A stretch of 64,000 nt of DNA from Nautilia profundicola AmH (GTDB lineage Bacteria > Campylobacterota > Campylobacteria > Campylobacterales > Nautiliaceae), in NCBI RefSeq assembly GCF_000021725.1, contig NC_012115.1:831001-895000 (forward strand), read 5' to 3'. Within the stretch, counting starts at the first letter, position 1. Each line of letters opens with the position of its first letter. The position numbers and the translations under genes are program-made. Under the pieces are notes generated by a model. That model was not told where the DNA came from. It saw only the letters and a program-made list of their open reading frames with translations, and did not search any database. Of this stretch, positions 41,347 to 45,052 are shown in pieces.

Positions 41347-42573
41347 ATGCTTCATAAGTTTTATAAACAAAAACTCAAAAACAACCTCGAAGTTATCGTT
41401 GTGCCTATGAACAAAGGCTCTAACGTAATTACCAGTAATATTTACTATAAAGTCGGAAGCAGAAACGAAATAATGGGCAAAAGCGGAATAGCACACATGC
41501 TTGAACATATGAACTTCAAATCCACAAAAAACCTCGCTGAAGGAGAATTTGACAAAATAATAAAAAGCCTCGGAGGAGTAGACAACGCATCCACCGGGTT
41601 TGACTATACGCACTATTACATTAAAACTTCAAGTGCGTATCTTGATAAAACGTTTGAACTTTTCAGCGAAGTTATGGAAAACCTGAATCTAAACGACGAC
41701 GAATTTCAAAGGGAAAGAAAAGTCGTATATGAAGAAAGACTCTGGAGAACGGACAACAACCCTATCGGGTATCTATATTTCAGGCTTTTTAACAATACAT
41801 ACCTTTACCATCCGTACCACTGGACCCCTATAGGGTTTAAGGACGATATTCTTAACTGGAGCATTGAAGATATCAGATCTTTTCACAAAACGTTTTACCA
41901 GCCTAAAAACGCGTTTTTACTCGTAGCAGGCGATATCGACCCTGAGGATGTGTTTAATTTGGCCGACAAATATTTCTCTCACATCAAAAACAGCAGAAAA
42001 ATTCCGAAAGTGCATATGAAAGAGCCTGAACTCGACGGTGACAGGCATGTGGTTATTCAAAGAGACACCGAAGTCGATATTGTAGCCATTGCTTACAGGA
42101 TTCCCGATTTCAAACATGAAGACCAGTTTGCGCTCAGTGCATACAGCGAGATACTAAGCGGAGGTAAAAGTGGCGTACTGCGTGAGAAACTGATAAACAA
42201 AAAAAGATTAGTCAGCGAAGTATACGCGTATAATATGGAACTAATTGATCCCGGTGTGTTTTTGGCTCTTGCAATATGTAACCCGGGAGTAAGTCCGGAT
42301 CTGGTGGAAAATGAGCTGAAAAAAACACTTCTGAATACCAAAATTACAAAAAAAGCCCTGAACAAAGTCAAAAACCAGACCAAAATGGACTTTTTGACAC
42401 AGCTTGAAAGCAGCTCGGGAGTTAGCAACGTATATGGGGATTATTTCGCAAAAGGCGACATTACCCCGCTTCTTGAATATGAAGACAAAATAAATGCTTT
42501 AACTCCTGAGAAGGTAGAGGATATAAAAAAATATTTCGACAAAAGCGTAACGGTAAAACTAATCAAAAAATAA
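41347..42573 (+). CDS. M16-family zinc peptidase
   Basis: 408 residues. The inverted zinc motif HMLEH occurs in GKSGIAHMLEHMNFKST near residue 46, with the third ligand in ERKVVYEERLWR about 75 residues later. The C-terminal M16 half (residues 190-400) is also present. No signal peptide is visible, so it is probably cytoplasmic, although some relatives are exported. Its nearness to pyrD and dapA matches Campylobacter, but here the restriction-modification block sits next to it. Confidence 0.9.
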   Translation: MLHKFYKQKLKNNLEVIVVPMNKGSNVITSNIYYKVGSRNEIMGKSGIAHMLEHMNFKSTKNLAEGEFDKIIKSLGGVDNASTGFDYTHYYIKTSSAYLDKTFELFSEVMENLNLNDDEFQRERKVVYEERLWRTDNNPIGYLYFRLFNNTYLYHPYHWTPIGFKDDILNWSIEDIRSFHKTFYQPKNAFLLVAGDIDPEDVFNLADKYFSHIKNSRKIPKVHMKEPELDGDRHVVIQRDTEVDIVAIAYRIPDFKHEDQFALSAYSEILSGGKSGVLREKLINKKRLVSEVYAYNMELIDPGVFLALAICNPGVSPDLVENELKKTLLNTKITKKALNKVKNQTKMDFLTQLESSSGVSNVYGDYFAKGDITPLLEYEDKINALTPEKVEDIKKYFDKSVTVKLIKK

Positions 42574-42626
42574 TTCCATATTTTGAATATTTCAACTTTT
42601 TTTTTGCTTTTCTCCCATTTTTATTA

Positions 42627-42632
42627 TACAAT
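42627..42632 (+). promoter_or_regulatory. Candidate -10 box before the HTH–methylase pair
   Basis: TACAAT within a T-rich stretch, 29 bases before the TTG at 42662. Confidence 0.35.
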
Positions 42633-42661
42633 AATATGAATATTTCTAAAAAGGTTAAACT

Positions 42662-42874
42662 TTGAATTTCCATGAATTTGAAAATATTTTAAAAAAAATC
42701 AAATTAACAAAGCAAGAATTTGCAAACTTTTTAGATATAGATAATACTACGATTTCTAAATGGAAAAATAACAAATATATACCTAAATATGCTGAAATAG
42801 CAATAAAATATTTATTGAACTTACAAAAAAACTGTATTGAATTTAAAAATATTAAGGATAAATATGGAAACTAA
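42662..42874 (+). CDS. Small HTH DNA-binding protein, possible controller of the R-M genes
   Basis: 70 residues. Cro/C1-type helix-turn-helix at about 14-36: KLTKQEFANFLDIDNTTISK, then WKNNKYIP. Start TTG lies seven bases behind AAAAAGG. It overlaps the methyltransferase start by 11 bases, so the two are coupled. Small HTH proteins in this position often regulate methylase and nuclease expression (C proteins), but it does not closely match the classic C-protein family; controller function is inferred. Very AT-rich, like the rest of the block. Confidence 0.7.
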   Translation: MNFHEFENILKKIKLTKQEFANFLDIDNTTISKWKNNKYIPKYAEIAIKYLLNLQKNCIEFKNIKDKYGN

Positions 42875-43922
42875 ACATATTTTATTATTTAAAAATTCTC
42901 AAAACACTCAAATAAATAATGAAAGTATTGATTTTATTTTAACATCACCTCCTTACCCTATGATTGAAATGTGGGATGAAACTTTTTTTAAATTAAATCA
43001 GGAAATAAAAAATCAATTTAATAAAAAAAATTATAGATTAGCATATGAATTAATGCATAATGAACTAAATAAAACATGGAAAGAATGTTATAGAGTACTA
43101 AAACCTGGAGGAATAATAGCTATTAATATTGGAGATGCAACCAGAACACTTAATAAAAACTTTCAATTATTTACAAATCATGTAAAAATAATAGAATATA
43201 TGCAAAATTTAGGCATGCAATCTCTTCCACCTATTATTTGGAGAAAAACCTCTAACAAACCAAATAAATTTATGGGATCAGGAATGTTACCAGTTAATGC
43301 TTATGTTACATTAGAACATGAATATATTTTAATTTTTAGAAAAGGTGAAAAAAGAAAATTCAATAAAAATGAGATTATAAGACGAAGAAAAAGTGCATTT
43401 TTTTGGGAAGAGAGAAACAAATGGTTTTCTGATATTTGGAAAGATATCGTGGGTGAAAACCAGACAATTGATAAATATTATAAAACAAATAGAGATAGGA
43501 ATGCAGCTTTTCCTTTAGAATTATCATTAAGACTAATACATATGTTTTCAATATATGAAGATACTGTTTTTGATCCCTTTCTTGGAACAGGTACTACAAC
43601 AATTGCAAGTGCAGTACTTGGACGTAACTCGATTGGATATGAAATTGACACATCTTTTAAAAATTTAATAAAAGAAAGAATTAATAATATTAAAACAATA
43701 ACTGAGCAATATATAAACAATAGAATTAATAGTCATAAAAAGTTTATAGAAAATTATATAAAACAAAAAAATAAAGCTTTTAAATATTATAATGAAAATT
43801 TAAAAACACCAGTTATGACCTCCCAAGAAAAAGATATCAGTTTTTATCAAATTTCTAATGTGCAAAAAAATGAAAATTTATTTATTTGTAAATATTCTAA
43901 TTTTACACCTTTTTTAATTTAA
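42864..43922 (+). CDS. DNA methyltransferase, TSPPY (N4-cytosine/beta) class
   Basis: 352 residues from ATG 42864, which has AAGGA five bases upstream; the frame is open from 42837. The catalytic motif IV comes first (FILTSPPYPMIEMWDE near residue 25), and the AdoMet-binding motif I comes late (VFDPFLGTGTTTIASAVLGR near residue 235), the circularly ordered beta-class layout. SPPY in place of DPPY points to N4-cytosine methylation. ECYRVLKPGGIIAINIGD is the conserved strand V region. With the MjaI-type nuclease next door, the target is probably CTAG. The coding sequence is visibly more AT-rich than its neighbours, a sign of transfer. Confidence 0.9.
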   Translation: METKHILLFKNSQNTQINNESIDFILTSPPYPMIEMWDETFFKLNQEIKNQFNKKNYRLAYELMHNELNKTWKECYRVLKPGGIIAINIGDATRTLNKNFQLFTNHVKIIEYMQNLGMQSLPPIIWRKTSNKPNKFMGSGMLPVNAYVTLEHEYILIFRKGEKRKFNKNEIIRRRKSAFFWEERNKWFSDIWKDIVGENQTIDKYYKTNRDRNAAFPLELSLRLIHMFSIYEDTVFDPFLGTGTTTIASAVLGRNSIGYEIDTSFKNLIKERINNIKTITEQYINNRINSHKKFIENYIKQKNKAFKYYNENLKTPVMTSQEKDISFYQISNVQKNENLFICKYSNFTPFLI

Positions 43923-43924
43923 TT

Positions 43925-44518
43925 TTATTTATTAAAAATAGCTTCGTCATATTCAATTATTAAATAAGATTTTGTTTTTTTATAAAAAATTATAGATACT
44001 GAAATATCTTCATTTTTTACATTAGTTTTTACTTTATATGACTCAGGTTTAATTTGAATTGGAATATCCCCAATAAAGCCATCTATATTTTGTGCCTCTT
44101 CTTCTGGTGTAGCTAATTTATATTTTTTATTATTTTTTTGTGCAAGATATTTTAATATAAATTCTTGTATCATTAATCCTTCTGGTGTTTTATTATATAT
44201 TAAATCTTCTACCCATACTTTAACTAATTCTTTATCAATTTTAATAAAAGCTTCTTTTAAATTTTGTAACATATTCCAAATTTTATCTACAGCTATTTCA
44301 ATTCTATCTTCGTAATTGTTTTTATAAAACTCTTTCCATTCTCCAATAGAATTAACTTCTTTGATTAATTCACTCATTTGACCTACCACCGCAGGTACAG
44401 TTCCTTTTGCATTTTGATTTGCAAGATTTATTATTTGAGTAGTATATTTAGGAAAAGTTGGCTTTTTTATATCTAACAATTCAAAAATATGATCTAATTT
44501 TATTTTTTCTTTTTTCAT
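43925..44518 (-). CDS. Type II restriction endonuclease, MjaI family (probable CTAG)
   Basis: 197 residues. It reads like the RE_MjaI family (known member R.MjaI of Methanocaldococcus, CTAG): PKYTTQIINLANQNAKGTVP near residue 24, VVGQMSELIKEV, WVEDLIYNKTPEGLMIQEFI, and the likely nuclease core ATPEEEAQNIDGFIGDIPIQIKPESYK near 140-165, whose D-x(n)-Q-x-K pattern suits a PD-(D/E)xK-type site. It is convergent with the methylase, two bases apart. Its ATG follows AAAAAAGGAAAGAA and lies 12 bases after the ICMT-like gene on the same strand, so it may be read from the housekeeping run upstream. Confidence 0.85.
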   Translation of the reverse strand: MKKEKIKLDHIFELLDIKKPTFPKYTTQIINLANQNAKGTVPAVVGQMSELIKEVNSIGEWKEFYKNNYEDRIEIAVDKIWNMLQNLKEAFIKIDKELVKVWVEDLIYNKTPEGLMIQEFILKYLAQKNNKKYKLATPEEEAQNIDGFIGDIPIQIKPESYKVKTNVKNEDISVSIIFYKKTKSYLIIEYDEAIFNK

Positions 44519-44530
44519 TTCTTTCCTTTT

Positions 44531-45052
44531 TTAATCAAAAAATAACTTCTTAAAACACTCCTTTGTTTTCGGAAAAAGGGGTGTTTTTTCTTTATATTTC
44601 AGATACTCTTCACCGAATTTCATATACGCTTCTTTTTCTTCAAGCGTAATAACCATAACAAATATAAATAACGCTTCAAGAGGAGCGATAAAGAATATAA
44701 AACTCGGCAAACCCAAAAAAAGTGCAACTCCAAGAGGCAGAAGCATCAGCCCGAAAAGCATAGGATGACGTGTGCATTCGTATATACCGCTTGTTACGAG
44801 TCTGTTTGTCTCAAGTCTCGGGATATCACCCTCTCGCCCTTTTCTTTTAAGCTCTCTGCCTCCGACTGCCGCCGCGTGAAAAGCGAATTTGAGTATAAAA
44901 TAACCAAGAGGCAAAGTAAACACGTGAAAAAAAGGATTTAATAAAAGGTTTTTAAAATATCTAAGATCAAGGTATAAAGAAAGGGCAATGCCCCCGAATA
45001 TTAATATAAGCCAGATAATTATCCTGATTACTACCGAAAGAGTTGTTTTCAT
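44531..45052 (-). CDS. Isoprenylcysteine carboxyl methyltransferase-like membrane protein
   Basis: 173 residues, four or five membrane helices. The AdoMet-binding signature of the ICMT/PEMT superfamily is in LVTSGIYECTRHPMLFGLML near residue 88, followed by LEEKEAYMKFGEEYLKYKEKTP near 140. It probably methylates a small hydrophobic or lipid substrate; bacterial members have varied roles. It overlaps the yggS stop by ATGA. Confidence 0.82.
   Translation of the reverse strand: MKTTLSVVIRIIIWLILIFGGIALSLYLDLRYFKNLLLNPFFHVFTLPLGYFILKFAFHAAAVGGRELKRKGREGDIPRLETNRLVTSGIYECTRHPMLFGLMLLPLGVALFLGLPSFIFFIAPLEALFIFVMVITLEEKEAYMKFGEEYLKYKEKTPLFPKTKECFKKLFFD

What the first reader, a model, noticed from the sequence alone, without database searches (positions are those of the whole stretch)
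42627..44518. Compact probable CTAG restriction-modification system with HTH gene
The sequence shows a TSPPY-class methyltransferase and, two bases away and convergent, a 197-residue protein with RE_MjaI-family wording (PKYTTQIINLANQNA, VVGQMSELIKEV, NIDGFIGDIPIQIKPESYK). A TTG-started HTH protein overlaps the methylase start. R.MjaI and its N4-cytosine methylase recognise CTAG (established for Methanocaldococcus). CTAG specificity here is inference. The block is visibly more AT-rich than the genes on both sides.
Basis: partly seen in the sequence, partly recalled or inferred. Interest (0 to 1): 0.68.

Follow-up and report, generated by a model that had tools for sequence, protein, structure and literature searches.

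The report
Acquired CTAG-type restriction-modification cassette
A deep-sea vent bacterium carries a complete, horizontally inserted 2-kb DNA-cutting and DNA-protecting gene pair of a known (archaeal-type) family, and its genome has almost entirely lost the four-letter word CTAG that this family is known to cut.

Summary
The finding is real and largely correctly read. 43925-44518(-) is an RE_MjaI-family endonuclease (Pfam 179 bits, cut-off 22.7). 42864-43922(+) is a beta-class SPPY (m4C-type) methyltransferase. Both are about 52% identical to the convergent R/M pair of archaeal plasmid pFZ1, whose methylase M.MthZI is a characterised CTAG enzyme. A 70-aa HTH gene overlaps the methylase start by 11 nt.

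New here: (1) Two congeneric genomes have the empty site, where the flanking genes overlap tail-to-tail. In the window a 14-bp direct repeat brackets a 1,958-bp, 22.5%-GC insert that keeps both gene ends and displaces the left gene's terminator. (2) CTAG is nearly extinct in the host: 14 sites against 479 expected in 464 kb, none in the window; 13 of the 14 lie at rRNA/tRNA genes or in one AT-rich island. Congeners without the cassette stand at 0.49 and about 1.0. Only 2 of 73 aligned CTAG sites of a congener survive, against 39% for control palindromes.

Caveat: another genus of the family is equally CTAG-poor without this system, so depletion supports but does not prove specificity. No methylome was available. 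Verdict: a new member of a known kind, with good indirect evidence for its target.

The parts
42560..42573 (.). Left copy of 14-bp direct repeat TAATCAAAAAATAA (3' end of the M16 peptidase gene)
   Evidence: Only direct repeat of 9 bp or more between the two junctions; single copy at the empty site of two congeners
42574..44531 (.). Inserted cassette, 1,958 bp, 22.5% GC, no CTAG, no transposase or integrase gene
   Evidence: Absent from congeners G028 and G397, where the flanking genes overlap; composition
42662..42874 (+). Small Xre-like HTH protein (70 aa, TTG start); putative regulator, overlaps the methylase start by 11 nt
   Evidence: HTH_19 E=6.5e-7, HTH_3 at cut-off; regulation is inference
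42864..43922 (+). DNA methyltransferase, beta-class order (TSPPY then DPFLGTGTT), MthZI-like, inferred m4C at CTAG
   Evidence: N6_N4_Mtase 147.5 bits, PADLOC MTase_II 471 bits; 52% identity to the pFZ1 methylase
43925..44518 (-). RE_MjaI-family type II restriction endonuclease; invariant E141, D146, K157
   Evidence: Pfam RE_MjaI 179.4 bits; PADLOC REase_II 200 bits; 52% identity to pFZ1 R; alignment of 25 members
44532..44545 (.). Right copy of the 14-bp direct repeat (3' end of the PEMT-family gene)
44552..44590 (+). Intrinsic-terminator-like hairpin followed by a T run; directly behind the M16 gene at the empty site, here displaced to the far side of the insert
   Evidence: -15 kcal/mol, z -3.7; same hairpin in both congeners
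41347..42573 (+). Left host gene, M16 peptidase
   Evidence: Pfam; orthologues in 21 of 21 genomes
44531..45052 (-). Right host gene, PEMT/ICMT-like methyltransferase, last gene of the run rseP-like, yggS-like, PEMT and co-directional with the endonuclease
   Evidence: rseP-like and yggS-like names from reading the translations

Best explanation
A complete type II restriction-modification system of the MjaI/MthZI family. The methyltransferase protects CTAG sites (most likely N4-methylcytosine). The 197-aa PD-(D/E)XK-like nuclease cuts unmethylated CTAG in incoming DNA. The 70-aa HTH protein, coupled to the methylase gene, probably tunes its expression. The unit entered the chromosome horizontally as a 1.96-kb cassette at a tail-to-tail gene overlap, leaving a 14-bp duplication that keeps both host genes whole, and has since driven CTAG almost out of the genome. 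Shown: gene families, homology to a characterised CTAG system, empty site, flanking repeat, CTAG loss. Inferred: CTAG as the actual target, m4C chemistry, HTH regulation, and that the cassette caused the CTAG loss.
For: Family hits well above cut-offs. R and M are both about 52% identical to the pFZ1 pair, in the same convergent order; M.MthZI is described as an experimentally characterised 4mC CTAG methylase (PMC5867850). All 25 relatives found in genomes have a methylase next door. Empty site in two congeners plus a 14-bp direct repeat. CTAG 14 against 479 expected, survivors mainly at RNA genes and in one AT-rich island. Congeners lacking the cassette: 201 against 409 (G028) and 15 against 15 in 20 kb (G397). 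2 of 73 aligned G028 CTAG sites are kept, against 548 of 1418 for six control palindromes; 0 of 12 aligned G397 sites are kept. No other N6_N4 methylase over the cut-off in the genome.
Against: CTAG is under-represented in most genomes irrespective of R-M content (PMC4687349). Relatives G004 and G039 are as CTAG-poor (0.01, 0.04) without RE_MjaI or any N6_N4 methylase match. The cassette's composition looks young while the depletion looks old. Which residues read the target was not tested. No expression or methylation data.
Confidence: 0.88

Rival explanations
1. The cassette is a working R-M system, but the CTAG depletion predates it and has another cause (an older CTAG system now lost, or a family-wide structural or mutational bias); the two coincide.
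For: Other members of the family are depleted without this system (G004, G039; G381 with 0 of about 15 expected); the cassette keeps foreign composition; CTAG avoidance is widespread (PMC4687349).
Against: Within the genus only the cassette bearer is depleted to 0.03; G397, the nearest relative (83.5% nucleotide identity), shows no depletion in 20 kb, and none of its 12 aligned sites is kept in the window. An ancestral depletion would require gains in both congeners.
Confidence: 0.25
2. Same system, but with a changed recognition sequence (not CTAG) relative to MjaI/MthZI.
For: R and M are only about 52% identical to the characterised pair; the residue two before the catalytic K157 is Q here and in a few relatives, S in most.
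Against: Of the 16 palindromic tetranucleotides only CTAG is nearly absent; the next, CGCG, is at 0.35 and is about as low (0.39) in a congener without the cassette. The conserved blocks FPKYTTQIINLANQN and IDGFIG are kept.
Confidence: 0.07
3. The endonuclease is silent or inactive and the unit now acts only as a methylation system.
For: The endonuclease has little promoter room of its own: 12 nt separate its ATG from the upstream PEMT stop. No expression data.
Against: The ORF is intact with all 30 columns that are invariant among 25 members, a purine-rich ribosome-binding site (AAAGGAAAG) and a co-directional host gene run; the lost CTAG sites mostly changed at the central bases (CTTG, CTCG, CAAG, CGAG) and rarely at the cytosine, which fits selection by cutting better than decay of methyl-cytosine.
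Confidence: 0.1

Closest known systems
MthZI R-M system of plasmid pFZ1 (Methanothermobacter thermautotrophicus, NC_001337)
   Same: Both proteins homologous end to end (about 52%), same convergent tail-to-tail order, CTAG methylase characterised
   Different: pFZ1 genes overlap by 12 nt instead of leaving a 2-nt gap; no HTH gene upstream of the methylase; plasmid-borne and archaeal; here chromosomal in a Campylobacterota bacterium
MjaI R-M system (Methanocaldococcus jannaschii), Pfam RE_MjaI PF09568
   Same: Same endonuclease family; M. jannaschii is the one control genome that rings; MjaI endonuclease cloned and characterised (PMC4752239)
   Different: Sequence not compared directly here
Spirochaetia MAG locus L006
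   Same: Nearest endonuclease relative in the tree (support 91/89), convergent methylase at 53% identity
   Different: The small gene overlapping the methylase start is a different 59-aa protein, not the HTH
R-M units inserted with long target duplication in bacterial genomes (Nobusato et al. 2000, seen only as a citation in PMC3874152)
   Same: R-M unit bracketed by a duplicated target sequence
   Different: Here 14 bp only, exactly at an overlap of two convergent genes; the original paper was not read
Orphan CTAG methylases of Haloarchaea (HVO_0794, PMC5867850)
   Same: Same kind of methylase
   Different: No endonuclease partner there

Membership tests
RE_MjaI (PF09568) type II endonuclease | Whole-domain match over the curated cut-off | tested here: met
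   179.4 bits against 22.7, profile positions 1-162 of 164
RE_MjaI (PF09568) type II endonuclease | Family-invariant residues present | tested here: met
   Shares the 30 invariant columns of the alignment of 25 members, including E141, D146, K157
RE_MjaI (PF09568) type II endonuclease | PD-(D/E)XK nuclease fold | tested here: inconclusive
   Model pLDDT 77.5; C-terminal half aligns with SPARDA nucleases and Hjc resolvases at Z 4-6, below the clear-match range
Beta-class m4C methyltransferase of the CTAG type | Motif IV (SPPY) before motif I, N6_N4_Mtase domain | tested here: met
   TSPPY at 27-31, DPFLGTGTT at 237-245; 147.5 bits; TSPPYP invariant in 16 relatives
MthZI-like R-M system | Cognate R and M adjacent and convergent | tested here: met
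   Window, pFZ1 and most MthZI-like relatives
MthZI-like R-M system | Recognition of CTAG | tested here: inconclusive
   Near-extinction of CTAG supports it, but G004 and G039 show the same without the system; no methylome
C-protein-controlled R-M system | Xre-type HTH controller coupled to an R-M gene, with operator repeats | tested here: inconclusive
   HTH present but coupled to M, not R; no convincing operator repeat found; no controller family among PADLOC hits

The most novel reading that the evidence does not exclude
A transposase-less R-M cassette that inserts with a short target duplication into the tail-to-tail overlap of two host genes, takes its endonuclease transcription from the upstream host gene run and methylase read-through from a host gene whose terminator it displaced, and then purged its recognition word from a whole genome; with the small gene coupled to the methylase being exchangeable between lineages (HTH here, unrelated small proteins in a Spirochaetia MAG, Woese-/Nanoarchaeota and Pacearchaeota).
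Probability: 0.25. Interest if true: 0.55.

Novelty: new member of a known kind. Interest (0 to 1): 0.4.

Why it matters
It gives a clean natural experiment: one cassette bearer and two congeners with the empty site, with loss of CTAG visible site by site in aligned DNA. Whether an R-M system drives avoidance of its own word is hard to settle for CTAG, because CTAG is rare in most genomes; here it becomes testable within a single genus. It also predicts which DNA would enter this strain poorly.

Tried and rejected
Single-protein scans of genome and viral contigs found nothing; the two-member alignment found 25 and 1. Weak RE_MjaI hits in other Campylobacterota were rejected: those in G223 and G260 fall in unrelated proteins (loci read), and the one in G030 lies in a frame with stops. 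Sequence search of solved structures for the endonuclease gave nothing; fold search gave only weak PD-(D/E)XK-like matches. The promoter scan found no more sites than shuffles, and no clear operator palindrome was seen. The idea that the G004/G039 depletion comes from a related CTAG system was tested by searching the second methylase type and PF01555; no match in either genome. The nearest HTH relatives on plasmids are not beside methylases in the two records read.

Full report
What is there. The convergent pair is an RE_MjaI endonuclease (179.4 bits, cut-off 22.7) and an N6_N4 methyltransferase (147.5 bits; PADLOC MTase_II 471 bits). The small upstream gene is an Xre-like HTH protein at the edge of Pfam cut-offs. 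The window lies in a single 1,676,444-bp contig.

Relatives. Plasmid pFZ1 of Methanothermobacter carries the same pair, each about 52% identical and convergent. Its methylase M.MthZI is described as a characterised 4mC CTAG enzyme in PMC5867850, and MjaI as cloned and characterised in PMC4752239. A profile scan found 25 further loci in a collection of 84,980 species genomes, scattered over bacteria and archaea, every one with a methylase beside the endonuclease. There are two methylase types: MthZI-like, nearly always convergent with R, and a second one (33-36% identical to the window's) in tandem with R. The window belongs to the first. Among 397 sampled Campylobacterota species only this genome has a full-length RE_MjaI. 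The endonuclease tree pairs it with a Spirochaetia MAG (91/89) rather than with archaea, so the donor is unknown.

Insertion. In congeners G028 and G397 the M16 peptidase gene and the PEMT-like gene overlap tail-to-tail and share one copy of TAATCAAAAAATA(A/G). In the window each gene has its own copy, and 1,958 bp lies between the copies. A terminator-like hairpin with a T run that sits just behind the M16 stop in the congeners (-13.5 to -15 kcal/mol, z -2.9 to -3.7) now lies beyond the insert. Sequence alone therefore suggests that M16 transcripts can run on into HTH-methylase, and that the endonuclease, 12 nt behind PEMT with its own ribosome-binding site, is read from the rseP-yggS-PEMT run. 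This is inference; no transcripts were seen. No transposase or integrase is in the insert. R-M units with duplicated targets have been reported (Nobusato et al. 2000, seen as a citation in PMC3874152). Because each gene needs its own 3' end, part of the 14-bp repeat could have been kept by selection rather than made in one duplication.

Target word. In 464 kb of the genome CTAG occurs 14 times against 479 expected from trinucleotides, and not at all in the 64-kb window. Of the 14, six lie in or next to the 23S and 5S rRNA genes, two in tRNA genes, five in an AT-rich glycan-type gene cluster near 1.55 Mb, and one in a gyrB-like gene. G028 has 201 against 409. G397 has 15 against 15 in 20 kb. 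A survey of about 50 Campylobacterota samples puts most between 0.3 and 1.1. Of 73 CTAG sites of G028 aligned to this genome 2 are kept, against 548 of 1418 (39%) for six other palindromes; changes are mostly at the central bases (CTTG, CTCG, CAAG, CGAG), few at the cytosine. None of 12 aligned G397 sites survives. The loss is therefore probably specific to this lineage. Against over-reading: CTAG is scarce in most genomes whatever their R-M content (PMC4687349), and relatives G004, G039 and perhaps G381 are equally poor without this family.

Mechanism. M methylates CTAG, R cuts unmethylated CTAG. The invariant E141, D146 and K157 and the strands at 147-158 of the model fit a PD-(D/E)XK-like site with S or Q at the usual E position; fold matches are weak. 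The HTH protein probably regulates the methylase with which it is coupled. In relatives other small ORFs end within -1 to +17 nt of the methylase start (L006, L009, L012, L014, L023/L024), while 9 of 150 large ORFs in these loci do so (that count includes these methylases). They match no Pfam family over its cut-off, so the idea of exchangeable regulators is only a lead.

Verdict. A genuine, acquired type II R-M system, a new member of a known kind; CTAG specificity is likely but not measured.

Noticed in passing
Genomes G004, G039 (and G381 in 20 kb): CTAG is 0.00-0.04 of expectation in these relatives of the same family although no RE_MjaI was found in them, and G004 and G039 have no N6_N4 methylase match; cause unknown.
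   Followed up: partly
L006, L009, L012, L014, L023, L024: directly upstream of the methylase: Short ORFs (48-97 aa) overlap or abut the methylase start; their sequences differ between lineages (one cysteine-rich, zinc-ribbon-like), suggesting exchangeable small partners.
   Followed up: partly
L031/L217 (IMGVR_UViG_3300021476_000163): A viral contig carries a diverged RE_MjaI-like gene overlapping an MthZI-like methylase in tandem, with a second partial RE-like match downstream.
   Followed up: no
Viral loci L215-L229: MthZI-like methylases occur on many viral contigs, mostly without an endonuclease within the 3 kb read on each side; possible counter-defence against CTAG systems.
   Followed up: partly
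Host genome about 1,550,000-1,559,500 (L086 10200-19300): AT-rich (20-25% GC) glycosyltransferase/flippase-type cluster that retains CTAG sites; probably acquired after the CTAG loss.
   Followed up: partly
L007, L008, L010, L011, L013, L015, L017-L020, L022: The same endonuclease family is paired with a second, distant methylase type in tandem order: a partner swap within one R-M family.
   Followed up: partly
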